In this document: positions 8,535 through 58,011 of the stretch, piece by piece
Numbering within the stretch: position 1 is the stretch's first letter
Layout: every line of letters starts with the position of its first letter
DNA from: Pseudobutyrivibrio ruminis
GTDB taxonomy: Bacteria > Bacillota > Clostridia > Lachnospirales > Lachnospiraceae
Length of the DNA: 64,000 nt
Assembly (NCBI GenBank): GCA_015057305.1
Contig: SVES01000003.1
Span: 62,001 to 126,000, forward strand
Reading direction: 5' to 3'
Position numbers and translations under genes: made by a program
The notes under the pieces: generated by a model
The model's input: the letters and a program-made list of their open reading frames with translations, nothing else
What the model was told of the DNA's origin: nothing
Databases searched by the model: none

Positions 8535-9548
8535 CTACAAACAATGAGAAAGTCTTTTAATCATTTTTGTATTAATTTCAATTTTGCTTGCATGGTATGT
8601 TTTTGTTGATAATTGGCTGATTAATTGTCTGGCGGCTGTTTGTCCAATATATGTACGTGGAACATCCATTGTAGTAAGACTAGGCTCGATAATGCGGCTT
8701 TCCGAAATATTATCAAAGCCAATAATAGCTATGTCATCAGGGACTTTATAACCTCTTAGTTTGAAGGCTTTGATGGCGCCAATGGCTATCATATCATTAT
8801 CAGCAAAATATGAAGGAGCAATATCAGTACCTTCATCAAGTATTTCAAGCATATCAGCCATTGCGTCTTCAATGGAAGGCGCAAGGCGATGAATTATAGA
8901 ACGGGATTTTGACATCCCGTTCTCTTTTATTGCTTTAAAATAGCCTTCCTGTCTTGCTTCGAAGTTGTAAATGTTATAGCTGGACTGTAAATAGCCTGGT
9001 TGCTTGCCTGTGATGCCGATTAAATAGCTTGTGGCAACGTAAGCCCCCTGGGAATTATTTATAAGAACGCTGTTGCAGTCCAAGGATTCAAAATAAGAGT
9101 CAAGTAATGTAAGAGGAATATTAAGATTAATAAATTTTTGGCAGGTGTCCTTTGATATTTCTGTACCAACAAGCACAATTCCAATGCAGTCATTTAGTCT
9201 CAGTTCTTCAAAAAGTTCATTTAAATCATCTGTTTTTTCATTAAATTGAACAAGTCTTGTTCCGATTTTATTTTTTTGACATTCGCTTTTTACCCCTTCA
9301 TACAGTTCATCGAAAATAGGAGTGTAGGAAAGTATGGCATTACTAGCCTTATAAAAAATCACGTAAATAATACCAGAAATGGATTCTGAGGTTTTAATTT
9401 TTGTAAAGTCGAAGCCTGCTTCCTCTGCGGCTCTTATTACCATTTGCCTGGTTTCAGTGCTGACCCCTGCTTTATTATTTAGTGCCATTGATACGGCAGT
9501 AGCACTTAATCCTAATTGCTTTGCAAGCTCTTTTGCAGTAATAGACAT
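8535..9548 (-). CDS. LacI-family transcriptional repressor
   Basis: A 337-residue LacI/GalR protein. The N-terminal helix-turn-helix and hinge are clear (TAKELAKQLGLSATAVSMAL, then NNKAGVSTETRQ), followed by a periplasmic-binding-protein-like sensor with FADNDMIAIGAIKAF and IIGFDNISESRI. GGAGG precedes the ATG on the minus strand. It is divergent from the 9693-16813 operon. A near-palindrome at 9601-9625 overlaps the predicted -35 of that operon, so it most likely represses the operon until its sugar arrives. Confidence 0.93.
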   Translation of the reverse strand: MSITAKELAKQLGLSATAVSMALNNKAGVSTETRQMVIRAAEEAGFDFTKIKTSESISGIIYVIFYKASNAILSYTPIFDELYEGVKSECQKNKIGTRLVQFNEKTDDLNELFEELRLNDCIGIVLVGTEISKDTCQKFINLNIPLTLLDSYFESLDCNSVLINNSQGAYVATSYLIGITGKQPGYLQSSYNIYNFEARQEGYFKAIKENGMSKSRSIIHRLAPSIEDAMADMLEILDEGTDIAPSYFADNDMIAIGAIKAFKLRGYKVPDDIAIIGFDNISESRIIEPSLTTMDVPRTYIGQTAARQLISQLSTKTYHASKIEINTKMIKRLSHCL

Positions 9549-9600
9549 AAATCCTCCAAAAAGATAAAGAATGAAATAAAGTAAAAATAAAGTTGATAAA

Positions 9601-9642
9601 ACTTTATATTCCGTTGGAATAAAGTATAAATCAAGCTATATT
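9601..9642 (+). promoter_or_regulatory. Promoter with overlapping LacI-type operator
   Basis: ACTTTATATTCC and GGAATAAAGT form an imperfect palindrome (9601-9625) around a GTT centre. TTGGAA (9614-9619) and TATATT (9637-9642) are separated by exactly 17 bases and make a credible sigma-A promoter for the operon starting at 9693. The operator covers the -35, a standard repression geometry. Assignment to the adjacent LacI gene is inference. Confidence 0.6.
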
Positions 9643-9692
9643 TAAAATCAAGAAGTAGAAATGCACTAAGGCATTATTAAAGGAGGATAACT

Positions 9693-11093
9693 ATGGCAAC
9701 AATAAAACTTGGTTTTGCACCTACAAGACGAAGCATTTTCAGTGCACCTGCAGCAGTAGAATATGCGAATTATACAAGAGATAAATTAAAAGCGATGGGG
9801 GTAGAGTTTGTAGATATTACAGATATTGCAGAGGATGGTCTACTCCATGATGAAGCTGATAGATTAAAAATAGAAGAAAAGTTTAGAAAAGAGGGAGTAG
9901 ACGGATTATTTTTCCCACATGGAAATTTTGGCACCGAATATGAGGTGGCAAGACTTGCAAAAAGCATGAATTTGCCTGTTCTTCTATGGGGCCCTCGTGA
10001 TGAGAGACCTGATGAAAAGGGTGTCAGACTAAGAGATAGCCAGTGCGGAATATTTGCAACTGGAAAGGTTCTTAGAAGATTCAAAGTTCCATTTACATAT
10101 CTTACAAATTGTAATTTAGAGGATGAAGCATTTGAGAAAGGAGTTAAGCAGTTCCTTAGAATTTGCAATGTAGTAAAAGCCTTTAGAAATATAAGAATAC
10201 TACAGATTGGACCTAGACCATTTGATTTTTGGTCAACAATGTGCAATGAAGGAGAGCTTCTTGAAAAGTTCAATATTCAACTAGCGCCAATTCCTCTTCC
10301 AGAATTAACAGCAGAAATCAAAGCAGCTAAGGAAGAAGGCACAAAGGTAGCAAAGACTATTGAGTATTGTAAGGAAAATTTCAACATTCAGATTAATGAT
10401 GAACAGCTTGAAAATGTTGCAGCTCTAAAGGTGGCTATGAGAAATCTAGCAGATAAATATGGTTGCACAGCAGGAGCTATTCAATGCTGGAATGCCCTTC
10501 AATCAGAAATTGGCATTATGCCATGTGCAGCAAACTCTCTATTAAACGAAGAAGGCTTCCCTGTTGTCTGCGAGACAGATATTCACGGAGCTATTACAGC
10601 ATTAATGGTTGAGGCTGCCGGTATGGATGAAAGCAGAAGCTTTTTTGCAGATTGGACTGTAAGACATCCTGACAATGACAATGGCGAGCTTTTGCAGCAC
10701 TGTGGACCATGGCCAATATCATGTGCAGGCTGTAAGCCAACAATTGGCTATCCACTTGCCTTTGACCATCCGGGGGCTGTGGAAGCAGAAGCAAAGCATG
10801 GTCTTTTAACCTTAGCTCGCTTTGATGGAGACGAAGGGGAATACTCACTACTTTTAGGAAATGCCAAGGGAATAGATGGACCTTACACAAAGGGAACTTA
10901 TCTATGGGTTGAGGTTGAAAATTGGCCACGACTTGAAGCAAAAATCGTAGAAGGACCGTACATTCATCACTGCGTGGGCATTCACCAGGATGTTGTGCCT
11001 GTGCTCTATGAAGCATGCAAATACATAGGAATCAAGCCAGACCTTTACGATGACGTAGAGCAGGAGGTGCTGGATAAAATTCACTGTATCTAA
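9693..11093 (+). CDS. L-fucose/L-arabinose isomerase-family protein (candidate sugar isomerase)
   Basis: A 466-residue cytoplasmic protein that resembles the fucose/arabinose isomerase fold family. N-terminal Rossmann-like domains (VDGLFFPHGNFGTEYEVARL, PVLLWGPRDE) are followed by the metal-site region VVCETDIHGAITALM and SCAGCKPTIGYP. Such enzymes interconvert aldoses and ketoses with Mn2+. It is first in the operon with an FGGY kinase and a split transketolase, the place expected for an aldose-to-ketulose step. AAAGGAGG precedes the ATG. In this context it is the best candidate for converting D-apiose to D-apulose, although a fucose, arabinose or other pentose substrate cannot be excluded. 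Confidence 0.75.
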   Translation: MATIKLGFAPTRRSIFSAPAAVEYANYTRDKLKAMGVEFVDITDIAEDGLLHDEADRLKIEEKFRKEGVDGLFFPHGNFGTEYEVARLAKSMNLPVLLWGPRDERPDEKGVRLRDSQCGIFATGKVLRRFKVPFTYLTNCNLEDEAFEKGVKQFLRICNVVKAFRNIRILQIGPRPFDFWSTMCNEGELLEKFNIQLAPIPLPELTAEIKAAKEEGTKVAKTIEYCKENFNIQINDEQLENVAALKVAMRNLADKYGCTAGAIQCWNALQSEIGIMPCAANSLLNEEGFPVVCETDIHGAITALMVEAAGMDESRSFFADWTVRHPDNDNGELLQHCGPWPISCAGCKPTIGYPLAFDHPGAVEAEAKHGLLTLARFDGDEGEYSLLLGNAKGIDGPYTKGTYLWVEVENWPRLEAKIVEGPYIHHCVGIHQDVVPVLYEACKYIGIKPDLYDDVEQEVLDKIHCI

Positions 11094-11100
11094 GATTTGC

Positions 11101-11185
11101 GCTCTGTTACGTTGACAAGCATAATGATTTCTTTGTTCGACAACATGTCTCACAAAGAAATATTATAGCTTGTCAACTACAGAGC
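11101..11185 (+). repeat. Long intra-operon hairpin A
   Basis: An 85-nt near-perfect hairpin in the 232-base gap between the isomerase-like gene and the transketolase genes. GCTCTGT pairs with ACAGAGC, GTTGACAAGC with GCTTGTCAAC, ATAAT with ATTAT and ATTTCTTTG with CAAAGAAAT, leaving a loop that can itself fold (GACA/TGTC). About 31 base pairs form with small bulges. No T-run follows, so it is not a simple terminator. Possible roles are mRNA processing or protection, attenuation, or a small mobile palindromic element. Confidence 0.8.
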
Positions 11186-11223
11186 TTAGGTTGAGGTGTA
11201 ACAGCACCGTATTATTTAGATGA

Positions 11224-11307
11224 GCTCGTAGCAAACAAGCTCTGATAATTCTCAAGCGAAACGTGTTGTTGAGCGGAGAATTCATCAGGCTTGTTGGCGT
11301 AACGAGC
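11224..11307 (+). repeat. Long intra-operon hairpin B
   Basis: A second hairpin of 84 nt, starting 39 bases after hairpin A. GCTCGT pairs with ACGAGC, AACAAGC with GCTTGTT, and CTGATAATTCTC with GAGAATT-c-ATCAG. The tip contains GCGAAACG. It ends 18 bases before the ATG at 11326, just ahead of the GAGGT ribosome binding site. Its sequence differs from hairpin A although size and build are similar. No open reading frame of note lies in the gap. Confidence 0.8.
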
Positions 11308-11325
11308 GGATTGGCGAGGTAGATT

Positions 11326-12165
11326 ATGAATGAAAAGGAATTGACTTTGAAGGCCTTGGATTTACGCAAGGTTGTAGTGGATATGATTATGAAATCAGGT
11401 GGAGGTCACATCGGCGGAGATTTTTCGGTGATGGAAACACTTGTTACATTGTATTTTGACCAGATGAATATAAGCCCTGAAAACAAGGATGATTTAAATA
11501 GAGACTATTTTATTATGAGTAAGGGCCATTCAGTTGAAAGCTATTACGCAGTGCTGGCAGATAAAGGCTTCTTTGATACGAAGGAATTGGTGGATACCTT
11601 CTCTCAATTTGGCTCCAAGTTTATAGGACATCCAAATAATGAAATCGATGGTATTGAAATGAACTCTGGCTCCCTAGGGCATGGACTTCCAGTATCTGTA
11701 GGAATTGCACTTGCATGTAAAAAGGATAATCGTCCGAGCCGTGTTTACACAGTTATGGGGGATGGAGAGCTTGCAGAGGGTTCCGTATGGGAAGGCTTTA
11801 TGGCTGCTGGACATTATAAATTGGATAATCTGTGCGCAGTTGTTGATAGAAATCATTTGCAGATATCTGGAAGCACGGAAGATGTTATGACTCATGAAAA
11901 TCTAAAGGCTCAGGTGAGAAGCTTTGGATGGAATGTAATAGAAGCAAACGGTAATAGTATAAAAGCCATGCATGACGCCTTTGAGGCAGCCAAAACTGTG
12001 AAGGATAAACCTACATGCATTATCGCAAATACCATAAAGGGCTTTGGCGGTGGAGAAGTTATGGAAAATAAAGCAAGCTGGCATCATCATGTTCCAAATC
12101 AAGAGGAATATCAGCAAATCATAGATGCCATCAATGCTAGAAGGGAGGCGGTCATAAGTGAATAA
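11326..12165 (+). CDS. Transketolase, N-terminal subunit (thiamine-PP-binding half)
   Basis: A 279-residue protein that is only the first half of a transketolase. It has KSGGGHIGGDFSVMETLVTL, the SKGHSVESYYAVL segment, and the thiamine pyrophosphate motif MGDGELAEGSVWEG ending in DRNHLQISG. The pyrimidine-binding half is encoded by the next gene, which overlaps it by 8 bases. Split transketolases occur in several bacteria and archaea; AptA/AptB of the D-apiose pathway (apulose-4-phosphate transketolase) and the sulfoquinovose transketolase are specialised examples. The flanking isomerase-like gene and FGGY kinase suggest the apulose-type reaction, transferring a ketol unit to glyceraldehyde 3-phosphate. 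An ordinary pentose phosphate role is the alternative. Confidence 0.9.
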   Translation: MNEKELTLKALDLRKVVVDMIMKSGGGHIGGDFSVMETLVTLYFDQMNISPENKDDLNRDYFIMSKGHSVESYYAVLADKGFFDTKELVDTFSQFGSKFIGHPNNEIDGIEMNSGSLGHGLPVSVGIALACKKDNRPSRVYTVMGDGELAEGSVWEGFMAAGHYKLDNLCAVVDRNHLQISGSTEDVMTHENLKAQVRSFGWNVIEANGNSIKAMHDAFEAAKTVKDKPTCIIANTIKGFGGGEVMENKASWHHHVPNQEEYQQIIDAINARREAVISE

Positions 12166-13099
12166 GATACCAAATAGACAAGCAATTTGCGAGACCTTAA
12201 TGGCTCACGCAAAGAATGATAGAGATATAATTGCACTTTGCTCTGATTCTAGAGGTTCTGCATCAATGACCCCATTTTTCAATGAGTTTCCAGAGCAATC
12301 TGTAGAGGTAGGAATTGCAGAGCAGAATTTAGTAAGCATCGCAGCTGGTATGGCTCATGTTGGAAAGAAGCCTTATTGTTTTTCTCCTGCATGCTTTATC
12401 AGTACACGTTCCTATGAGCAGGCAAAGGTAGATGTAGCCTATTCCAACACGAACGTAAAGCTTATAGGTATTAGTGGCGGTATCAGCTATGGCGAGCTTG
12501 GTATGAGCCATCATAGTGCACAGGATATTGCTGCAATGACGGCTATTCCGAATATGAGAGTATATCTGCCTAGTGATAGATTCCAGACTGGAAAGCTTAT
12601 TGAGGAATTGCTCAAGGATGAGAAACCAGCGTATGTGCGAGTAGGTAGGAATCCAGTTGAGGATATATATTCTGAGGATAACATTCCATTTGAAATGGAT
12701 AAAGCTACCGTACATAAGTATGGGGTGGATAATGAAGATAAAGTGGTTATTGTTGCATGTGGCGAAATGGTACGTCCAGCAGTTGATGCAGCTAAAATAT
12801 TGGAGGACAGGGGAATAGCAGCTACTGTTATTGATATGTATTGTCTGAAACCATTTGATGAGAAAACTCTGGTTCAATCTCTGGAGGGGGCAAGACTTGT
12901 TATATCCATTGAAGAACATGCACCATTTGGCGGACTTGGTTCCCAGGTTGCGTCTGTTGTAAGTGCCAATAGACCAATAAAGGTAAAGCAAATGGCTTTG
13001 CCGGATGACCATGTTATTACGGGAAAATCAAAGGATGTATTTAACTACTATGGTTTGAATGCGGAGGGTATCGTAAATGCGGTATGTAATCTCGATTGA
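12158..13099 (+). CDS. Transketolase, C-terminal subunit
   Basis: A 313-residue second half of the split transketolase. It carries the pyrimidine-binding domain with the cofactor-activating Glu region VEVGIAEQNLVSIAAGMA, the HHSAQDIAAMTAIPNM loop and the C-terminal domain (EEHAPFGGLGSQVASV). Translation starts at GTG (12158) inside the end of the N-subunit gene, with GGGAGG upstream, so the two are translationally coupled. The active enzyme should be an alpha2beta2 complex with thiamine diphosphate. The next gene, the kinase, overlaps its last 23 bases in another frame. This tight coupling shows that kinase and transketolase act in one pathway. Confidence 0.92.
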   Translation: MNKIPNRQAICETLMAHAKNDRDIIALCSDSRGSASMTPFFNEFPEQSVEVGIAEQNLVSIAAGMAHVGKKPYCFSPACFISTRSYEQAKVDVAYSNTNVKLIGISGGISYGELGMSHHSAQDIAAMTAIPNMRVYLPSDRFQTGKLIEELLKDEKPAYVRVGRNPVEDIYSEDNIPFEMDKATVHKYGVDNEDKVVIVACGEMVRPAVDAAKILEDRGIAATVIDMYCLKPFDEKTLVQSLEGARLVISIEEHAPFGGLGSQVASVVSANRPIKVKQMALPDDHVITGKSKDVFNYYGLNAEGIVNAVCNLD

Positions 13100-14549
13100 T
13101 CAAAGTACCCAGGGGACAAAAGCTCTATTGTTCGATGGAAATGGCACCTTAATGTGCCGAGTCGACGCGCCTCATAAGCAAATAGTAAATGACAAGGGCT
13201 GGGTGAGTCACGACCCAGAGGAAATATACGAGAATGTAATAAAGGTTACTAGAGGCGTTTTATCAAAGGCTAATGTTAGTCCTGAACAAGTAGTTGGGGT
13301 TGGAATTAGCAACCAAAGAGAAACCAGCGTAATCTGGGATAAAAATACTGGACTTTCATTGAATAATGCAATTGTCTGGCAATGCGCCAGAGCAACAGAA
13401 ATCTGTGAAAGGCCTGCAATTAAGGCAGCTGCAGATATTGTGTTCGAAAAAACAGGCCTAAAGCTTTCGCCTTATTTTCCAGCAGCAAAGCTGGCATGGT
13501 TAATAGAAAATACTAAAGGTGTCAGGGAAAAACAAAAAAAGCATGAAATATGCCACGGTACTGTGGACAGTTACCTTGTGTATAGATTGACAAAGGGCGA
13601 ATGTTATGGAACAGATTATTCCAACGCCAGCAGAACAGAACTTTTTGATATATTCCGACTAAAGTGGGATGAGGAAATATGCAGCTTGTTTGGAATTGTT
13701 CCAGAAGATATGCCACGTGTTTTAGATTCCAATGCATGCTTTGGTTATTCGGACTTTGAGGGACTATTTTCAGAACCTATTCCTATTCATGGAGTTTTAG
13801 GAGACAGTCATGGAGCTTTATATGGACAGGATTGTAGAAAGGCTGGAATGGCAAAAGCTACTTACGGAACTGGCTCGTCTATTATGATGAATATTGGTAA
13901 TAAACCCCTTCTAAGCAAAAACGGTTTGGTCACATCCCTTGCATGGGGAATAGATGGCAAAGTGGATTATGTCTTGGAAGGAAATCTGAATTACACTGGG
14001 GCAGTAATCACATGGCTGAAGGATGATTTAGAATTAATTGAAAGTGCTGGAGATACAGAAAGTCTGGCTCTAAAGGCTAATAAGGAAGATAATCTCTATT
14101 TGGTGCCAGCCTTTACAGGACTTGGCGCACCTTATTGGAATTCTAATGCAAAGGCTTCGATAGTTGGAATGGATAGAACCACTAGAAAGCCAGAGATTGT
14201 CAGAGCAGCTTTGGAGTGCATAGCTTATCAAATTACTGATATAATAAATTCTATGAAGGAAGATGCAGGTCTGGTTTTATCTGAGCTTAGAGTTGATGGT
14301 GGCCCAACAAAAAATGGCTATTTAATGCAATTCCAAAGTGATATTGCAGGCTGCAATGTACGTGTGCCTAATCAAGAGGAGCTTTCTGGAATAGGTGCAG
14401 CTTATATAGCAGGAGTGGCGCTGGGGATATGGAACGAAGACATCTTTGGAAAAATGAAACGAAATGTATTTAAACCAATGATGGATTCGGCAAAAAGAGC
14501 AGCTAAATATAAAGGCTGGAAAGAAGCAGTCAATTGTACATTAAGGTGA
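13077..14549 (+). CDS. FGGY-family carbohydrate kinase
   Basis: A 490-residue cytoplasmic kinase of the xylulokinase/glycerol kinase family. The N-terminal phosphate loop is ISIDQSTQGTKALLFD. Further motifs are GVGISNQRETSVIWD, the mid-protein GTGSSIMMNIG adenosine region and the C-terminal DGGPTKNGYLMQFQSD signature. It overlaps the transketolase C-subunit gene by 23 bases, so it belongs to the same pathway. In the D-apiose route the corresponding enzyme phosphorylates D-apulose at O4 before the transketolase step. Glycerol, xylulose and other keto-sugars are alternative substrates that sequence alone does not exclude. Confidence 0.9.
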   Translation: MRYVISIDQSTQGTKALLFDGNGTLMCRVDAPHKQIVNDKGWVSHDPEEIYENVIKVTRGVLSKANVSPEQVVGVGISNQRETSVIWDKNTGLSLNNAIVWQCARATEICERPAIKAAADIVFEKTGLKLSPYFPAAKLAWLIENTKGVREKQKKHEICHGTVDSYLVYRLTKGECYGTDYSNASRTELFDIFRLKWDEEICSLFGIVPEDMPRVLDSNACFGYSDFEGLFSEPIPIHGVLGDSHGALYGQDCRKAGMAKATYGTGSSIMMNIGNKPLLSKNGLVTSLAWGIDGKVDYVLEGNLNYTGAVITWLKDDLELIESAGDTESLALKANKEDNLYLVPAFTGLGAPYWNSNAKASIVGMDRTTRKPEIVRAALECIAYQITDIINSMKEDAGLVLSELRVDGGPTKNGYLMQFQSDIAGCNVRVPNQEELSGIGAAYIAGVALGIWNEDIFGKMKRNVFKPMMDSAKRAAKYKGWKEAVNCTLR

Positions 14550-14559
14550 TGGAGGGCTC

Positions 14560-15489
14560 ATGGGAAAACTAGCATACGAGGTACCGGAAGGTAAAAAAGT
14601 AAGATATATTATACATACAGATTGCAAGAATGAGGCTGATGACCAGTATACGGTGGCACATTGCTTGATGACTCCACTGTTGGATATAAAAGGAATTATA
14701 GCAGCTCATTTTGATAAATCATATGGAAGATATCCAGCTGGAGCTACGGCTAAAGCAAGCTATGATGAAATAATGACCGTACTTGATAACATGGATTTAA
14801 CAGGAAAATACCCTGTTAAATGCGGTGCAGCAGTTGCAATGTCAGATGAAAACACCCCTGTAGATAGCGATGGCGCCAGATTAATTATCGAGGAAGCTAT
14901 GAAGGATGATAAAAGGCCTTTATATATTGGCTTGCAGGGGTCAATCACAGATCTTGCCAGTGCAATTTTGCTTGAGCCTAAAATCTGTGACAGGATGACA
15001 GCCATATGGATTGGCGGCGGTGAGTATCCAAAGGGAGGAACAGAGTTTAACCTTTCACAGGATATTGCAGCGGCAAATGTGGTTATGAATTCAAGCATGC
15101 CGTTGTGGCAGGTGCCATCAAATATATATAAGAATTTTGCAGTGTCTCTTGCAGAGCTTCAAGTTAAGGTAAAGCCTTGCGGAAAAATTGGAGAATATTT
15201 ATTTAAAGAGCTTACAGAGCTAAATATGCAGCTTGGAAATGCTATGCCTGAATTTGATTGGCCTCACGGGGAGCTATGGGGACTTGGTGACGAAGGTGTA
15301 ATTGCAGCTCTTATGCATGAAGGACAACGCAGGGATATGTATCATGAAATTCCAGCACCTACTTTTGATTATGAGACAATGGAATACAACCTGGATACAA
15401 GTAACAGAAAAATACGTATTTACGATATGATGGATTATAGATTAACTCTTGAGGATTTATTTGCTAAACTAAAAATCTTTTCAGAGTAG
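14560..15489 (+). CDS. Nucleoside-hydrolase-like protein
   Basis: A 309-residue protein with the inosine/uridine-preferring nucleoside hydrolase fold. The N-terminal metal site is HTDCKNEADDQYT rather than the textbook DTDPGxDDA, closer to the divergent DUF1593-type branch. Later it has a GLQGSITDLASAI helix, IGGGEYPKGGTEFNLSQDI and IRIYDMMDYRLTLEDL. Nucleoside hydrolases use Ca2+ to cut the N-glycosidic bond of ribosides. This branch has no firm function that I can name. It sits between an FGGY kinase and an apiosidase-like hydrolase, so it may act on an unusual pentosyl or apiosyl conjugate. GGAGG lies seven bases before the ATG. Confidence 0.75.
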   Translation: MGKLAYEVPEGKKVRYIIHTDCKNEADDQYTVAHCLMTPLLDIKGIIAAHFDKSYGRYPAGATAKASYDEIMTVLDNMDLTGKYPVKCGAAVAMSDENTPVDSDGARLIIEEAMKDDKRPLYIGLQGSITDLASAILLEPKICDRMTAIWIGGGEYPKGGTEFNLSQDIAAANVVMNSSMPLWQVPSNIYKNFAVSLAELQVKVKPCGKIGEYLFKELTELNMQLGNAMPEFDWPHGELWGLGDEGVIAALMHEGQRRDMYHEIPAPTFDYETMEYNLDTSNRKIRIYDMMDYRLTLEDLFAKLKIFSE

Positions 15490-15514
15490 AGATTGTATAA
15501 GGAGAAGAAATAGT

Positions 15515-16813
15515 ATGAGTAAACATGGAATGGTAAAAGCAGTTGATTCCCATTTTGAATATGAGGATGGAACTTTCTTTTATCCTTTTGGAACAACAAT
15601 TTATGCACTTGCACATCAGACACCAGAGCTTATGGAGCAGACCTTTGAAACGCTTAAAAATGCACCATTTAATAAGGTGAGAATGTGTGTATTTCCAAAG
15701 CACTATCAGTACAATAACAATGAGCCAAGATTTTATCCTTTTGAGAAAAGAGAAGATGGCTCTTGGAATCCAGAGAAGCCTGTAAAAGAATATTGGGACA
15801 ATCTTGAAAATGTCATCAAAAGATTAGATGAAATGGAAATTCAGGCCGATTTAGTTTTGTTCCATTCATATGACAACTGGGGCTTTGCGACTATGCCTCA
15901 GGAGGATAATCTAAAGTATCTTGAATATTGTTTAAAGAGGCTTGGGGATTTAGATAATGTATGGTGGTCTCTTGCCAATGAGTATGATTTGCTACTCTCA
16001 GAAATTACCATGGAGGAATGGTATGAAATCGAAGAATTTGTAGCTTCACATAATCCGCGAGGACACCTTATCTCAAATCACAATTGCTTTAAGACATGGG
16101 ATATTGGTAGAAAAAATATAACCCATGGTTCATACCAGATAAAAAATATGTGCTATGTGGCAGATAGAATCGAGGAATTCGGTAAACCTATTTGTGTGGA
16201 TGAATGCTGTTATGAAGGAAATCTCCCAGAAGCTTGGGGTAATCTATCCGCAGAGGAAATGACGGCAAGATTCTGGATGTCAATAGCAAGTGGAGCATAT
16301 TGCACCCACGGTGAGACATTCCTAGATGAAAATGACATCGTATGGTGGGCAAAGGGCGGTAAGCTAAAGGGAAAGTCCCCTGAGAGAATCAAGTTTTTGA
16401 GAGATATTGTGGAAAGCTTGCCAGCACCTTTAAAGGCATACAAAGAAGCCCCATTCGAATTCATGGATAATCTTCCAGATGAGGTAAAAGAGACCTTTAC
16501 AAAATCTCCTGCAGGTAGAAGCTTCCAAATGGCTATGGCCATGGCTGATCCAATGGAAATGACAGTACTAAATACCTTTGAACATGAGTATAAGGCATGC
16601 ACTGAAGGAAAAGAAGTTATTCTCAATTATCTGTACCAGCGGTGCGAGGGCATTCATAGGTTGTTGCTTCCAAAGGATAAAAATTATAGGGTCGAGGTAA
16701 TAGATACCTGGAATATGACAAGAACTGTAGCTTGTGAAAATGTGTCAGGAATGATAAATATAGATTTACCAGGAAAGCCATATATGGCTATTCTTGCTAT
16801 CGCAAATAAATAA
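15515..16813 (+). CDS. Clan GH-A glycoside hydrolase, apiosidase-like (GH140/DUF4038/DUF5605 type)
   Basis: A 432-residue cytoplasmic TIM-barrel hydrolase. The N-terminal FYPFGTTIYALAHQTPELME and the FNKVRMCVFPKHY strand match the DUF4038/apiosidase-like group. Clan-A catalytic residues are visible: acid/base Glu156 in WWSLANEYD and nucleophile Glu230 in ICVDECCYE. A C-terminal beta domain of about 100 residues resembles DUF5605. GH140 enzymes release D-apiose from rhamnogalacturonan II. Being last in an operon with an isomerase-like enzyme, FGGY kinase and split transketolase, release of apiose or another pentose from a small glycoside is the natural reading. There is no signal peptide, so the substrate must be imported. 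Other GH-A families cannot be excluded by eye. Confidence 0.72.
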   Translation: MSKHGMVKAVDSHFEYEDGTFFYPFGTTIYALAHQTPELMEQTFETLKNAPFNKVRMCVFPKHYQYNNNEPRFYPFEKREDGSWNPEKPVKEYWDNLENVIKRLDEMEIQADLVLFHSYDNWGFATMPQEDNLKYLEYCLKRLGDLDNVWWSLANEYDLLLSEITMEEWYEIEEFVASHNPRGHLISNHNCFKTWDIGRKNITHGSYQIKNMCYVADRIEEFGKPICVDECCYEGNLPEAWGNLSAEEMTARFWMSIASGAYCTHGETFLDENDIVWWAKGGKLKGKSPERIKFLRDIVESLPAPLKAYKEAPFEFMDNLPDEVKETFTKSPAGRSFQMAMAMADPMEMTVLNTFEHEYKACTEGKEVILNYLYQRCEGIHRLLLPKDKNYRVEVIDTWNMTRTVACENVSGMINIDLPGKPYMAILAIANK

Positions 16814-16918: not shown

Positions 16919-17770
16919 ATGGGAATGGAACCATCTTTAGAAGAAATTTTCGGCAGCTATATGCCTTATAAAATTACAGATGATACATGGGTGCTTAGCT
17001 TTATGAATGGCAGCGAGTACATGTATTTGTTAGAGGGAAATGAGAAGGCACTTCTTATTGATACAGGCTATGGTGTGGGAAATCTGAAAAAATGTGTGGA
17101 AAAACTTACAGATAAGCCAATACTTGTTGTTAATACACACTTTCACCCAGATCATTCTGCTGGAAATGGGGAATTTGAAGAGGTTATGGTTGCAGCAGGC
17201 TGGGAAGTGGATGCACCATCTGTTAGCTTTCCTGAGCAGATACCATTTGATATCTCAAAGCTTCCTCATCCAGATTACAAAAAGGTAATAATAGGTGAGG
17301 GAGATGTTATTGATTTAGGTGGACGCAAGATTAAGGTCATGGACGTAGCTCCAGCACATTGCAATTCTAGCTTGTTTTTCTATGACGAAGAAAATGGCAT
17401 GATTTTTGTGGGGGACGAAATAGAGGCGGCTCAGGTAAATATGTTTGATAATTCTTGTAACCTTGATGCACCATATGAAGTTAACCAACGCTTGCAGAAT
17501 ATGAAGGCAAATTGTGAGAGAGTGAAGGCATTAAAACCACAATTCATTTTTCCAAACCACAATGGAACACCAATAGCTTCAAGCTATGTGGATGATTTCA
17601 TTGGTCTCATTGATGGCATATATGAAGGAAAAGCCACAATAGAAGATAAGCTCAATCATAAATATATTGAAATGGACCCTAAGGCACCTACTCTTTGTCG
17701 GGTAAGATATGGTAAGGCTAGTATTTTCATTAAGAAGGATTTGGTAATGAGTGTGTATGGAAGTAACTAA
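16919..17770 (+). CDS. Metallo-beta-lactamase-fold hydrolase
   Basis: A 283-residue cytoplasmic protein with the MBL metal motif NTHFHPDHSAGN (HxHxDH), the third-ligand region APAHCNSSLFFY, the bridging Asp in IFVGDEIEAAQ and a late IFPNHNGTP histidine. The fold hosts thiolesterases, lactonases and other hydrolases, so the substrate is not predictable. It stands alone between an embedded promoter upstream and a terminator-like structure downstream. A second MBL hydrolase at 21941 sits with a GPH symporter, and the two may act on related glycoside-derived esters or lactones. GGAGG lies before the ATG. Confidence 0.85.
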   Translation: MGMEPSLEEIFGSYMPYKITDDTWVLSFMNGSEYMYLLEGNEKALLIDTGYGVGNLKKCVEKLTDKPILVVNTHFHPDHSAGNGEFEEVMVAAGWEVDAPSVSFPEQIPFDISKLPHPDYKKVIIGEGDVIDLGGRKIKVMDVAPAHCNSSLFFYDEENGMIFVGDEIEAAQVNMFDNSCNLDAPYEVNQRLQNMKANCERVKALKPQFIFPNHNGTPIASSYVDDFIGLIDGIYEGKATIEDKLNHKYIEMDPKAPTLCRVRYGKASIFIKKDLVMSVYGSN

Positions 17771-17780
17771 TGAACTCTAT

Positions 17781-17880
17781 ATTCGGTGGCACCCATCCAG
17801 GTGAGGAAACCTCAATTGATTTATTGACCTGATAATGATACATTTTAGGCAGTAATTACATTGAGGTTTTTTCTTTTTAT
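17781..17880 (+). promoter_or_regulatory. Terminator or structured leader before AraC-GH39 gene
   Basis: AAACCTCAAT (17807-17816) pairs perfectly with ATTGAGGTTT (17860-17869), followed by a T-rich run, which looks like an intrinsic terminator with a long 43-base loop. A competing hairpin TGAGG-AAA-CCTCA (17802-17814) uses the same left arm, and CAGGT/ACCTG could also pair. These mutually exclusive pairings resemble an attenuator. It may simply end the 16919 transcript, or it may control the gene at 17909. Confidence 0.5.
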
Positions 17881-17908
17881 TTATAGAATTATAGTTTGGT
17901 GTGCGACA

Positions 17909-20395
17909 ATGGCTAAAGATAATATTAGTAATTTCTATAATATTAAATATGATTATGACAATACAGAAGAAGGTATTCAGATTCATGATTACCTTGAAAT
18001 ATTATATGTGCTGTCAGGGAGACTAGCTATATTTTATGATGGCAAGAACTATGTTTTGCAGCAAGAAGATTTTGTAGTATTAAATCCATTTGTTAGCCAT
18101 GAGACCTACAAAGAAAAAGGGTGTCATACAATTTCTTTCTACATAAGTAGTAGTCTTTTAGAAGCCCATAAAATACCTAGTGTAGAATGTAACAGCAGAG
18201 TTAATAGCAAAAGTGGGGTTATGTTTAGCGTCAGAAAACAGTTGGCGTTGTTGCTTGAGGACTTAATTAAAAATGATGTAAGCAAGGAGATATTTGTAGA
18301 AAGCAAATTGTTAAATTTATTAGGAACTTTGGCGGTAAATTTTGCAAAAGACAACACAAATGAGGAAAGTACAGCTGAAATAAAAGCTGATAAAATGAGA
18401 GAGATTTTGTTATATATACACTCTCATTATCAAGAAAAATGTAGTTCATCTGAAATTGCAAGTAAATTCTATATTTCCCAGGGATACTTTTCTAAGTTGT
18501 TTGAAAAAAACATGGGAGTCAGCTATTCAAACTATGTAAGGAGTTTGAGATTGGCTCACGGTGAAAAGCTGCTTTTGACAAGCAATAAGCAGGTGGTAGA
18601 AATATCAGAGGAATGTGGCTTTGAAAATGTAAATACCTTTATTGAAAATTTTAAAGCTAAGTATAAAGAGACTCCCAGTCAATATAGGAAAAAGAATGGA
18701 TTGGTCGATAGCATTAAAAGGGAAGCAATTTCGGACAAAAAGGACAGAACACTGTTATATGCCTTACTAAAATATGCTTCATCATCTCCGGATGAATATA
18801 ATCAAAGTAATGTTTTTGAAAAAACTATTTCTTTAGATGTGGATGCTAATGAAATAAATGAAGAAGCCTGTAGTTCATTGTTTAAAACTCTGAATATGGG
18901 CTATGCAATAAATATGATTAATCCTAAGGTGCAAGGAATTGTAAAAAAAGCCAAGGAAAAGTTTGATTTTCGCTATTTGTATGTGCAAGGTATTTTTGAT
19001 GAAGACATGTCTGTTTTTGTGAAAGATAAAGCGGATGAGTTGGTTCCAAATTGCAAATTGATTAATCAGATTGTAGATATAATTTTATCCTGTAATATGC
19101 TTCCGTGGATTGAATTATCAAGAATACCAAGCGAGCTAATTAATGCCCCTAAAAACAGATTTCATAACGGGTATGTACAATTGCCAGATAATATGCAAGA
19201 TTGGTTGCAATTAGTTCACAATGTGATAGTTAATTTTGTGGAAAAATATGGCAGGGAAAATGTGTCTAGGTGGAGAATCAGTATTCTCCCAGGGCTTTAT
19301 ATTTCCTATGATGTTTTTTCCTTCCATGAGTACATGGATTTTTACACTAGAACAGTTGAAGTTATAAGAGCGGTTATTCCTGAACTGAAAATATGTGGAG
19401 GAATATTTGATATTAGGTTATTGCAGGCAAAATGGAATAAACGTGATGCTGATTTATTTACAAGGTTCTTGGTGGAAGCAAAAAAACGAAAAGTCCTACC
19501 AGATATATTAGGGGTTCAATGCTTTTCCGTAGACTATAGTAGTAGAGATGCCAAGGAAACAGAAGAAAGGATAGTGACATCAGCAGGAGGAAATGATCCT
19601 GTTAGTCCGACGGCAGATGCAGATAGTTTGATGCATGACAATAGTTTACTGAAATCATATATTTTGGCAGCTAATGTAGATATTCCTGTAGCTTATATTT
19701 CATGGAACAGTAGTATATGGTACCAGGATTTAGGAAATGATACCTGTTTCAAGAGTGCATATTTAGTCAAGAATGCCTTAGAAAATGCCAGAGATTTAGA
19801 CAGCCTTTGTTATGGTATTTTTTATGATGAAGAAGGAGACGGAGTCTTGTTTAGCGGAGGGTATGGCCTTGTGACAGAAAAACTAATCCCTAAGGCTGAT
19901 TATTATGGGCTTTGTATTCTGAAGGAAGTGGAGAATAAAAATGTAATTGCCCAGGGAAAGGGCTATTGCTTTTTGAAAAATGCCACATTTGACGAATATT
20001 ATTTGGTGCTTTATCACTATTGTCATTATGATTTGGATTTACGAATAGGTGAATTAATTCCAAGAGAAGAGCAAAGGTCAATTGATAGATACTATGCTTT
20101 TGTTAATGATGGCTTATGGAATATGCACATCAAAATTAACAATTTGCCAGAAGGAATATGGGATAGAGAAGATACAGTTGTTGGACGAGCAAGTGGTTCT
20201 AGTTACGATAAATGGATGGAGATGGGGTCTCCTAATTATATAAATGATTATCAACGTGATTACTTGATAAGTGCCTCTAAGCCTAAGCTTATTCTTAGAG
20301 AAGAAAAAGTTGGTGATGATGGTGAATTAGATATTAATGTAATGCTTGAACCCCACGAAATCAATTTGATTAAGCTTAAAATGAGACAATCATGA
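17909..20395 (+). CDS. AraC-family regulator fused to a degenerate GH39 domain
   Basis: An 828-residue protein. A cupin (roughly 25-100) is followed by an AraC double helix-turn-helix (roughly 155-265; SSEIASKFYISQGYFSKLFE, VVEISEECGFENVNTFIENF). After a linker, about 530 residues align with GH39 beta-xylosidases. Both catalytic glutamates appear lost: the WNEP acid/base segment reads SILPG (about residues 458-462), and the TEWNSS nucleophile segment reads ISWNSS (Ser598), while surrounding residues such as DTCFKSAYLVKNALEN are well kept. The domain is therefore probably a sugar sensor, not an enzyme. The ATG at 17909 lacks a strong ribosome binding site; an upstream in-frame TTG at 17861 falls inside the terminator-like arm and is unlikely. 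It precedes a GPH symporter and MBL hydrolase that it may regulate. Confidence 0.85.
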   Translation: MAKDNISNFYNIKYDYDNTEEGIQIHDYLEILYVLSGRLAIFYDGKNYVLQQEDFVVLNPFVSHETYKEKGCHTISFYISSSLLEAHKIPSVECNSRVNSKSGVMFSVRKQLALLLEDLIKNDVSKEIFVESKLLNLLGTLAVNFAKDNTNEESTAEIKADKMREILLYIHSHYQEKCSSSEIASKFYISQGYFSKLFEKNMGVSYSNYVRSLRLAHGEKLLLTSNKQVVEISEECGFENVNTFIENFKAKYKETPSQYRKKNGLVDSIKREAISDKKDRTLLYALLKYASSSPDEYNQSNVFEKTISLDVDANEINEEACSSLFKTLNMGYAINMINPKVQGIVKKAKEKFDFRYLYVQGIFDEDMSVFVKDKADELVPNCKLINQIVDIILSCNMLPWIELSRIPSELINAPKNRFHNGYVQLPDNMQDWLQLVHNVIVNFVEKYGRENVSRWRISILPGLYISYDVFSFHEYMDFYTRTVEVIRAVIPELKICGGIFDIRLLQAKWNKRDADLFTRFLVEAKKRKVLPDILGVQCFSVDYSSRDAKETEERIVTSAGGNDPVSPTADADSLMHDNSLLKSYILAANVDIPVAYISWNSSIWYQDLGNDTCFKSAYLVKNALENARDLDSLCYGIFYDEEGDGVLFSGGYGLVTEKLIPKADYYGLCILKEVENKNVIAQGKGYCFLKNATFDEYYLVLYHYCHYDLDLRIGELIPREEQRSIDRYYAFVNDGLWNMHIKINNLPEGIWDREDTVVGRASGSSYDKWMEMGSPNYINDYQRDYLISASKPKLILREEKVGDDGELDINVMLEPHEINLIKLKMRQS

Positions 20396-21940: not shown

Positions 21941-22765
21941 ATGGGAATTGAGTTTTTTGAAAAGGAAAAAATAACAGATAATATCATAGCAATAAAGGAT
22001 ATTACTGGTGTATTTATGTATTTGGTAATAGGCAATGAAAAAGCCATTTTGATAGATACAGGCACAGGAGCTGGTAACCTATTTGAATACGTTAAAGGCC
22101 TTACGGATTTGCCAATTGAAGTAATACTGACACACGGACATTGTGATCATGCTGGTGGCGCGAAGTACTTTGAAAAGGTATATCTACCAGAGGAAGATTT
22201 TGAGCTTGTAAAAATCCATTCATCAATGGAAAGAAAGATTGAATATATACATTTTTCTGGTGGAGAAAATGTACCTGATAACGAAATTGTAGGGGAGAGA
22301 AACGACGGTTACCTTAAGCTTAAAGACGGACAGATTTTTGATTTGGGAAATGAGCAGTTGGAAATGATTAAATTGCCTGGTCACACCAAAGGAATGACAT
22401 GCGTTTTATTTAAGAAAGCAAGAATTATTCTCATGGGGGATGGATGTAATCCAGCAACATTTGTGTGGGATGATGAATCTCTTACAGTTAAGGCTTTTTT
22501 GGATAATCTTTATAATCTAAAAAAGAGGGAAGCCGATTATGACACAGTTTTGGTATCACACGGAAATCCAATATGTGATAAGCAGATACTAGATGGGGTT
22601 ATAGATGTTTGCAAAGAGGTATTAGCTAAAAATGATGATGCCATACCATATCATTTTATGGATTATGAAGGCTTAAAAATGGCAAAGGAAATAAATCCTA
22701 AAACCTTCCAAAGGGTTGACGGAGGGATAGGGAATATTGTCTATAATGTAAAAAAGATTTCCTGA
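21941..22765 (+). CDS. Metallo-beta-lactamase-fold hydrolase
   Basis: A 274-residue cytoplasmic MBL-fold protein with the metal motif LTHGHCDHAGGAKYF, LPGHTKGMTCVLF for the third ligand and ILMGDGCNPATFVW for the bridging Asp, plus a late VSHGNPICD. It is similar in layout to the protein at 16919 but clearly distinct in sequence. The weak ribosome binding site and five-base spacing to the symporter suggest translational coupling. The substrate is unknown; an ester, thioester or lactone derived from the imported compound is plausible. Confidence 0.85.
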   Translation: MGIEFFEKEKITDNIIAIKDITGVFMYLVIGNEKAILIDTGTGAGNLFEYVKGLTDLPIEVILTHGHCDHAGGAKYFEKVYLPEEDFELVKIHSSMERKIEYIHFSGGENVPDNEIVGERNDGYLKLKDGQIFDLGNEQLEMIKLPGHTKGMTCVLFKKARIILMGDGCNPATFVWDDESLTVKAFLDNLYNLKKREADYDTVLVSHGNPICDKQILDGVIDVCKEVLAKNDDAIPYHFMDYEGLKMAKEINPKTFQRVDGGIGNIVYNVKKIS

Positions 22766-54996: not shown

Positions 54997-55069
54997 CGTG
55001 AATGTGACGAGTATTCATGGTATAGTGACAACATGAAACCATGATCAAGATGGAGGAGTGACTAATATT

Positions 55070-57871: not shown

Positions 57872-57901
57872 TATGACTTTTCATGTGAAAAAGCAATGAA
57901 T

Positions 57902-57945
57902 AAAGGACATCAAAATACATTTATAGTGTATTTTGATGTCCTTTT
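57902..57945 (+). terminator. Intrinsic terminator after GH78 gene
   Basis: AAAGGACATCAAAATACA pairs perfectly (18 bp) with TGTATTTTGATGTCCTTT around a seven-base loop and is followed by TTTTG. It is the strongest terminator in the window. TATACT at 57950 may be a -10 for the GH127 gene. Confidence 0.92.
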
Positions 57946-58011
57946 GTTATATACTAATTAGTAGGAAAAAGTGTAATATTTTAGATTTATTTAAAATAAA
58001 GGAGAATAAGT

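What the first reader, a model, noticed from the sequence alone, without database searches (positions are those of the whole stretch)
9601..16813. Candidate complete D-apiose (or related pentose) catabolic operon under LacI control
Seen: LacI-type regulator and operator, fucose-isomerase-like protein, transketolase split in N and C subunits, FGGY kinase overlapping the transketolase gene, a nucleoside-hydrolase-like protein and a clan GH-A hydrolase resembling the apiosidase (GH140/DUF4038) group. Known: one described D-apiose route uses an isomerase to D-apulose, an FGGY apulose kinase and a split apulose-4-phosphate transketolase (AptA/AptB). Inference: this operon releases apiose inside the cell and feeds it into the pentose phosphate pool. 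The isomerase family and the nucleoside-hydrolase-like gene would be new elements of such a pathway.
Basis: partly seen in the sequence, partly recalled or inferred. Interest (0 to 1): 0.82.

Follow-up and report, generated by a model that had tools for sequence, protein, structure and literature searches.

The report
Operon for using the sugar apiose
A bacterium related to Butyrivibrio carries a six-gene operon that very probably breaks down apiose, a branched sugar of plant cell walls, by a known route but with a different isomerase.

Summary
The kinase (13077-14549) and split transketolase (11326-13099) group with AplK and AptA/AptB of an Escherichia coli cluster whose carriers grow on D-apiose (PMC13001218, passages), apart from glycerol kinases and other split transketolases, although AU tests do not exclude other groupings. 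The kinase shares AplK's Gln-to-Ser change beside the catalytic aspartate: DS(H/N/Q/E) in 68 of 68 operon kinases, DSH in 4 of 4 AplK, DQQ in 34 of 34 glycerol-kinase-like sequences. The E. coli apiose-cluster transporter lies upstream of the isomerase in 14 of 80 relatives, in 0 of 36 control loci, but not in the window. The isomerase has the arabinose/fucose isomerase fold, the superfamily of the Enterobacterales cluster's isomerase, but forms a separate clade: probably a second, non-orthologous apiose isomerase. The same core is found in Listeria (lmo1031-1036), earlier called a glycerol-metabolism operon. The two hydrolases may release apiose inside the cell; their substrates are unproven. 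A new variant of a known pathway. The primary paper (Carter 2018) was not held, so clostridial cases may already be described there.

The parts
8535..9548 (-). LacI-family regulator, divergent from the operon
   Evidence: PF13377, PF00532, PF00356; homologues beside the isomerase in many relatives
9587..9607 (.). operator-like palindrome ATAAAGTTGATAAAACTTTAT, about 100 bp upstream of the isomerase
   Evidence: core WAAGT-N7-ACTTW in 13 of 47 loci with divergent LacI, 0 of 66 without
9693..11093 (+). aldose-ketose isomerase of the L-fucose/L-arabinose isomerase superfamily; proposed D-apiose isomerase of a clade separate from ApsI
   Evidence: Foldseek top hits L-arabinose isomerases, query TM 0.77-0.83; 27% identity to the Enterobacterales isomerases; separate clade 99/94; E294, D320, H425, H426 conserved with them
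11094..11325 (.). two inverted copies of a multi-copy palindromic repeat between isomerase and transketolase genes
   Evidence: 36 matches in own genome, itself included; RNA fold z -9.5
11326..12165 (+). transketolase N subunit, AptA type
   Evidence: PF00456; 42% to E. coli AptA; trees
12158..13099 (+). transketolase C subunit, AptB type
   Evidence: PF02779/PF02780; 36% to E. coli AptB; trees
13077..14549 (+). FGGY kinase, proposed apulose kinase (AplK type)
   Evidence: 38% over full length to E. coli AplK; DSH motif; rooted tree
14560..15489 (+). nucleoside-hydrolase-fold protein, accessory; proposed furanoside hydrolase
   Evidence: PF01156 47.2 vs 34.2 bits, PF07632 37 vs 26.8; Foldseek nucleoside hydrolases, query TM 0.65-0.74; TDxKNExDD and E-N-D motif
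15515..16813 (+). apiosidase-like clan GH-A hydrolase with DUF5605 tail, no signal peptide seen by eye
   Evidence: PF13204 59.3 bits, PF18310 51.7 bits; 4n0r 245 bits; only PF13204 match found in the draft genome

Best explanation
The operon is a D-apiose catabolic operon of the transketolase type. Inferred mechanism: apiosides enter the cell; the apiosidase-like hydrolase (and perhaps the nucleoside-hydrolase-fold protein) frees apiose in the cytoplasm; the isomerase converts D-apiose to D-apulose; the AplK-type kinase phosphorylates one hydroxymethyl arm of apulose, which is in effect a glycerol carrying a hydroxyacetyl group on C2; the AptAB-type split transketolase moves that two-carbon group to glyceraldehyde 3-phosphate, giving xylulose 5-phosphate and dihydroxyacetone phosphate. 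A divergent LacI repressor probably controls the operon through a palindrome at about -100. Shown here: gene content, conserved synteny, grouping of kinase and transketolase with the E. coli apiose genes, shared kinase motif, apiose-cluster transporter in some relatives, isomerase fold. Inferred: all substrates, reactions and the regulation. Recalled, from no call: the pathway chemistry and enzyme order (Carter 2018).
For: E. coli SE15 aplK/aptA/aptB are named, and cluster-carrying E. coli and E. fergusonii strains are shown to grow on D-apiose, in PMC13001218 (passages); SE15 genes fetched. Full-length similarity 38/42/36%. Concatenated transketolase tree with the window's own row: operon + AptAB + two further rows one clade 100/99. 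Kinase tree with outgroup: operon + AplK + one further row one clade 99/99. Motif DSx in 68 of 68 operon kinases (64 DSH), DSH in 4 of 4 AplK, DQQ in 34 of 34 sequences at least 50% identical to E. coli GlpK; the first arginine of WQCRR is replaced in 67 of 68 operon kinases and 4 of 4 AplK, kept in 32 of the 34. Same gene set aptA-aptB-isomerase-aplK in 3 Enterobacterales plasmid records. Binding protein + ATPase + permease of the E. coli apiose cluster (about 36-52% identity) upstream of the isomerase in 14 of 80 relatives, all three together in 0 of 36 control loci. Best PDB hits of one such binding protein (L066) and of the E. coli one are both 5ibq/4ry0, well above ribose-binding proteins; that 5ibq holds apiose is recalled. 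Homologues of the window's hydrolase in 14 of 80 relatives; a Listeria protein matching PDB 'Apiosidase' 8t9w has homologues (24-43%) in 5 more of the 80 (L014, L015, L041, L057, L080). The genome keeps a separate GlpK-like kinase (44%) and a separate split transketolase (42%).
Against: The isomerase is not orthologous to the isomerase of the Enterobacterales clusters. AU tests do not exclude kinase + GlpK (p 0.298), operon + other split transketolases against AptAB (p 0.062; 0.078), or AptAB + other split transketolases (p 0.12; 0.011, so that rejection is not stable); AplK and AptAB sit on long branches. The window lacks the apiose ABC transporter: its only match is one ATPase at 30%. L017 and L020 have isomerase and hydrolase but no transketolase or kinase found within 10 kb downstream; L038, L044, L060, L078 and L079 have kinase without AptAB-type genes nearby (three of them with under 5 kb of contig left; L079 has a 39/32% transketolase pair on the other strand); L059 lacks the kinase. 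Isomerase relatives at 55-57% (L158-L160) sit beside other FGGY kinases, so the wider family probably serves other sugars. The hydrolase has no close characterised apiosidase relative.
Confidence: 0.82

Rival explanations
1. It is a glycerol or dihydroxyacetone operon: the kinase is a second glycerol kinase and the transketolase a spare housekeeping enzyme, as the Listeria counterpart was described.
For: Kinase passes NCBIfam NF000756 GlpK (582.9 vs 498) and its best PDB hits are glycerol kinases; the Listeria operon lmo1031-1036 was called 'responsible for glycerol metabolism' (PMC3091722, passages); AU test does not exclude kinase + GlpK.
Against: Misses TIGR01311 (572.2 vs 590.35); lacks the DQQ motif of 34 of 34 GlpK-like sequences; best tree places it with AplK; the genome has a separate GlpK-like kinase; an isomerase and apiose-type transporters do not fit glycerol.
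Confidence: 0.06
2. It degrades another sugar (another branched or rare pentose, tetrose or hexose) that yields a ketose cleaved by the same transketolase type.
For: Isomerase is a clade of its own; its relatives sit in loci with other kinases.
Against: Kinase, both transketolase halves and, in 14 of 80 relatives, the transporter all track the apiose cluster; apiosidase-like hydrolases recur.
Confidence: 0.09
3. Sulfoquinovose or another sulfosugar is degraded by a sulfo-transketolase route (SqvD/SqwGH type).
For: Best NCBIfam hit of the isomerase is sulfoquinovose isomerase NF048012, and the transketolase is split.
Against: 106.3 bits against a cut-off of 700; no gene typed in the window suggested a sulfosugar enzyme (not searched for by name). 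No SqwGH sequence was at hand for the trees.
Confidence: 0.01
4. Same pathway in another order: the transketolase acts on free apulose and the kinase phosphorylates the dihydroxyacetone released.
For: Kinase is glycerol-kinase-like; glycerol kinases can phosphorylate dihydroxyacetone (recalled).
Against: Grouping and motif shared with AplK, an apulose kinase as recalled; a Q-to-S change fits a substrate larger than dihydroxyacetone (inference).
Confidence: 0.05

Closest known systems
D-apiose degradation I (MetaCyc PWY-8089; ApsI, AplK, AptA/AptB), Pectobacterium and Escherichia clusters
   Same: AplK-type kinase, AptA/AptB-type split transketolase, isomerase of the same superfamily as the isomerase gene of the Enterobacterales clusters; in 14 of 80 relatives the same type of ABC transporter
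   Different: Isomerase from a separate clade (27-29% identity); LacI regulator instead of the 'sugar-binding transcriptional regulator'; intracellular-looking hydrolases in the operon; E. coli has two oxidoreductases that PMC13001218 hypothesises to replace the isomerase
Listeria monocytogenes lmo1031-1036 (annotated fucose/glycerol metabolism)
   Same: LacI, isomerase (70%), transketolase halves (56/53%), 'glycerol kinase', DUF4038 hydrolase
   Different: PTS beta-glucoside transporter; kinase on a long branch with DSE; DUF4038 protein matches solved apiosidases
GH140 / Pfam PF13204 apiosidases (PDB 8t9w, 5msy)
   Same: PF13204 domain, NE and HGE motifs shared with 4n0r
   Different: DUF5605 tail; no PDB sequence match to 8t9w or 5msy at E up to 10
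Inosine-uridine nucleoside hydrolases
   Same: Fold and Asp-cluster motif
   Different: 12-17% identity in the Foldseek hits listed, below the cut-off of each NCBIfam model it hit

Membership tests
D-apiose transketolase pathway | AptA/AptB-type split transketolase | tested here: met
   clade 100/99 with AptAB apart from 19 other split transketolases; AU tests do not exclude the alternatives (p 0.062 and 0.12)
D-apiose transketolase pathway | AplK-type FGGY kinase | tested here: met
   clade 99/99, DSH motif; AU for kinase + GlpK p 0.298, not excluded
D-apiose transketolase pathway | ApsI orthologue as D-apiose isomerase | tested here: not met
   same superfamily, separate clade 99/94. That the Enterobacterales isomerase gene is apsI is inferred from its place in the cluster
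D-apiose transketolase pathway | apiose ABC transporter beside the genes | tested here: not met
   not in the window (one 30% ATPase); present in 14 of 80 relatives
D-apiose transketolase pathway | activity on apiose, apulose and apulose 4-phosphate | not testable with these tools
   needs enzyme assays
Glycerol kinase GlpK (TIGR01311 equivalog) | model cut-off and DQQ motif | tested here: not met
   572.2 vs 590.35 bits; DSH instead of DQQ; the broader NF000756 cut-off is met
Sulfoquinovose isomerase SftI (NF048012) | model cut-off | tested here: not met
   106.3 vs 700 bits
GH140 apiosidase | PF13204 domain | tested here: met
   59.3 vs 26.5 bits
GH140 apiosidase | close relation to solved or characterised apiosidases | tested here: not met
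   among solved structures only 4n0r found convincingly, E up to 10
Nucleoside hydrolase | fold and calcium-site aspartates | tested here: met
   the role of the aspartates is recalled
Nucleoside hydrolase | hydrolysis of nucleosides | not testable with these tools
   needs assay

The most novel reading that the evidence does not exclude
Clostridia, Listeria, spirochaetes and synergistetes use a second, non-orthologous D-apiose isomerase, and the nucleoside-hydrolase-fold protein of this operon is a cytoplasmic O-apiofuranosidase: the fold that normally cleaves N-ribosides, recruited for a branched furanose with the same 2,3-cis-diol. That would be a new glycosidase class for apiosides.
Probability: 0.2. 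Interest if true: 0.68.

Novelty: new variant of a known kind. Interest (0 to 1): 0.5.

Why it matters
It assigns a common clostridial gene cluster (an isomerase relative at 70% identity or more in 33 of 200 sampled genomes of the window's family, own genome included) and the Listeria operon lmo1031-1036 to one plant-cell-wall sugar, and suggests that some 'glycerol kinases' (labelled so in the Listeria and Monoglobus records) are misnamed, with a short motif to tell them apart. It makes apiose use in gut and rumen bacteria directly testable and offers candidate intracellular apiosidases for apiose-containing glycans such as rhamnogalacturonan II (that polymer's make-up is recalled).

Tried and rejected
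Sulfosugar route: rejected, isomerase far below the SftI cut-off. Glycerol operon: judged unlikely on motif, best tree and separate GlpK-like kinase. Housekeeping transketolase: judged unlikely on the trees. A simple ORF caller on GC-rich relatives gave antisense ORFs; replaced by tblastn. An unrooted kinase tree could not place AplK; repeated with an outgroup. PDB search by sequence with the isomerase found nothing at E 0.01; replaced by a fold model. A palindrome search over upstream regions gave many chance palindromes before the specific pattern was counted.

Literature: searches for apulose (no paper), apiose with isomerase, kinase and catabolism (one listed), apiose in Clostridia (12 listed of 366, none of the 12 holding 'apiose'), apiosidase/GH140 with Lachnospiraceae (one listed), 5ibq (1) and apiose with solute-binding protein, isomerase or apionate (3). 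Among what was listed I judged only PMC13001218 directly relevant; PMC11747546, which mentions D-apiose, was not opened. PMC6302742 (passages) mentions other apiose routes; passages of PMC8112048 and PMC6668579 did not help. The ligand of 5ibq could not be confirmed from any call.

Rows dropped or thinned: the kinase motif count used 125 sequences of at least 440 residues; tree sets were thinned (24 of 68 operon kinases; 30 of 98 operon TKN rows). The window's own transketolase rows were missing from the trees, because identical copies had been merged under another locus id; one search repeats the concatenated tree with them. That repeat kept the clade (100/99) but raised the AU p of AptAB + other split transketolases from 0.011 to 0.12; confidence was lowered from 0.85 to 0.82 for that. 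The 19 comparison transketolases are the genome's own plus 18 of the 30 loci fetched as best AptA matches in 299 genomes of the phylum; I take them as housekeeping, but their neighbours were not examined.
Full report
What is there. The window lies in a 3.42-Mb draft genome (G000, 113 contigs). The closest named loci are metagenome-assembled Butyrivibrio, Pseudobutyrivibrio and other Lachnospiraceae, one of them titled water-deer rumen. TKN/TKC overlap by 8 nt, TKC/kinase by 23 nt; the last two genes follow at 10 and 25 nt. Neither hydrolase shows a signal peptide by eye.

Reference genes. A 2026 paper (PMC13001218; passages seen) names aplK, aptA and aptB in E. coli SE15 and shows that three E. 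coli strains and one E. fergusonii strain carrying the cluster grow on D-apiose while K-12 does not. I fetched the SE15 region. The window kinase is 38% identical to AplK over its length, TKN 42% to AptA, TKC 36% to AptB. The same gene set with an isomerase gene (annotated 'L-fucose/L-arabinose isomerase family' or 'fucose isomerase') between aptB and aplK is found in plasmid records of Klebsiella, Sodalis and Rahnella; I take that gene to be apsI from its place. The window isomerase is 27-29% identical to it.

Transketolase. In the concatenated tree with an outgroup and the window's own row, 21 operon enzymes, 4 Enterobacterales AptAB and 2 further rows form one clade (100/99) apart from 19 other split transketolases, the genome's own among them. 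AU tests do not exclude operon + those 19 against AptAB (p 0.062) nor AptAB + those 19 (p 0.12); an earlier run without the window's row gave 0.078 and 0.011, so only the clade support, not the rejection, is stable. Separate N and C trees agree in outline (window rows not included there).

Kinase. With an outgroup, 24 operon kinases, 4 AplK and one further row form one clade (99/99), and AplK is the sister of 22 of the operon kinases (87/90); 17 glycerol-kinase-like rows lie elsewhere; the AU test does not exclude kinase + GlpK (p 0.298). At the position of GlpK's DQQ (34 of 34 sequences at least 50% identical to E. coli GlpK), operon kinases read DS(H/N/Q/E) in 68 of 68 (64 DSH) and AplK DSH in 4 of 4. 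The first arginine of WQCRR is replaced in 67 of 68 operon kinases and 4 of 4 AplK and kept in 32 of the 34. Recalled: the residue after the catalytic aspartate touches glycerol in GlpK. Apulose is a glycerol with a hydroxyacetyl group on C2, so a smaller residue there makes sense (inference).

Isomerase. No PDB match by sequence at E 0.01; the model (pLDDT 83.8) matches L-arabinose isomerases at query TM 0.77-0.83 and L-fucose isomerases at 0.70-0.74. In the family tree the operon isomerases lie in a mostly clostridial group separate from the Enterobacterales isomerases and their Bacillota relatives (99/94, midpoint root). E294, D320, H425 and H426 are conserved in both; that such residues bind the metal is recalled. 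So the superfamily is shared with the known pathway but the enzyme is not an orthologue. PMC13001218 hypothesises that E. coli replaced apsI by two oxidoreductases, so this step may be exchangeable.

Neighbourhoods. Of 80 named relatives (best 80 kept of 101), 57 have isomerase, both transketolase halves and kinase within 8 kb; of the 23 others 15 have under 2.5 kb of contig downstream. The remaining eight are L017 and L020 (no transketolase or kinase found), L059 (no kinase), and L038, L044, L060, L078 and L079 (kinase but no AptAB-type genes nearby; L044, L060 and L078 have under 5 kb of contig left; L079 has a 39/32% transketolase pair on the other strand). The E. coli apiose-cluster transporter (binding protein, ATPase, permease, about 36-52%) stands upstream in 14 of 80; all three together in 0 of 36 control loci, though two controls had one or two parts at 33-36%. 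A gene cluster in 16 of 84 loci, one member typed as DUF2291, accompanies it, as in E. coli. Binding proteins of L066 and of E. coli both have 5ibq and 4ry0 as best PDB hits; that 5ibq was solved with apiose is recalled. Homologues of the window's hydrolase occur in 14 of 80 loci and Listeria-type DUF4038 homologues (24-43%) in 5 others of the 80. Neighbour clusters, each typed by one member: rhamnosidase 18, GH2 11, GH127 8, GH42 6, alpha-L-fucosidase 6 of 84 loci, some of these loci being near copies of each other. The window itself holds GH2, GH3, GH39, GH43, rhamnosidase and GH127 genes, a pectin-like setting. Rows labelled Synergistota and Spirochaetota are among the relatives.

Listeria. 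In Listeria record NZ_LR134403 a LacI gene is followed by isomerase (70%), transketolase halves (56/53%), 'glycerol kinase', PTS transporter and DUF4038 protein; the order fits lmo1031-lmo1036 in PMC2996996 (passages), the mapping being mine. PMC3091722 (passages) deleted lmo1031-1036 as an operon for glycerol metabolism, saw a modest reduction of intracellular replication, and called lmo1031 possibly fucose-related. The reading here is apiose. The DUF4038 protein matches PDB 'Apiosidase' 8t9w (92 bits).

Hydrolases. The window's PF13204 protein is the only match found in its draft genome and is closest to 4n0r, not to solved apiosidases; apiosidase activity is plausible, not shown. The nucleoside-hydrolase-fold protein (model pLDDT 83.0; query TM 0.65-0.74 to nucleoside hydrolases) keeps TDxKNExDD and the E-N-D motif. 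Its cluster is found near the isomerase in 5 of 84 loci; another cluster, one member typed as Sde182 nucleoside-hydrolase-like, in 5 different ones. It may cleave apiofuranosides; this is the boldest reading and untested.

Regulation. The palindrome at 9587-9607 shares its core with 12 other loci, all with a divergent LacI gene and some near-identical (13 of 47 against 0 of 66). Between isomerase and TKN lie two inverted copies of a multi-copy palindromic repeat.

Verdict. A D-apiose operon of the AplK/AptAB type with its own isomerase clade and local hydrolases: probability 0.82. Novelty is limited because the pathway is known and because PMC13001218 says, citing Carter 2018, that Clostridia degrade apiose; I could not read Carter 2018.

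Noticed in passing
window 11094-11325: Two inverted copies of a palindromic intergenic repeat of about 80-100 bp, with 36 matches in this genome (itself included), inside the operon; as RNA the stretch would form a very stable hairpin (z -9.5).
   Followed up: partly
window 17861-20395: An AraC-type regulator and a GH39 glycoside hydrolase domain in one 844-aa protein (PF12833 + PF01229).
   Followed up: no
window 16919-17770 and 21941-22765: Metallo-beta-lactamase-fold-like proteins (the first has sub-cut-off hits to SoxH-related and lactonase models; the second by eye only); a gene annotated N-acyl homoserine lactonase family also sits in the Monoglobus locus (L156).
   Followed up: no
L155 5296-13086: Listeria monocytogenes lmo1031-1036 counterpart: likely an apiose operon, although the papers seen filed it under glycerol or fucose metabolism.
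   Followed up: partly
window 55058-59964: Rhamnosidase (PF17389) and GH127 genes further along the window, families that also flank the core in relatives such as L032, L036 and L037.
   Followed up: no
L158-L160: Isomerase paralogues at 55-57% identity beside two other FGGY kinases: probably a different rare-sugar pathway.
   Followed up: no
L234, L235: Bacillota genomes with an ApsI-like isomerase (46-48%) and two different split transketolases within about 7 kb, one of them in the apiose clade.
   Followed up: no
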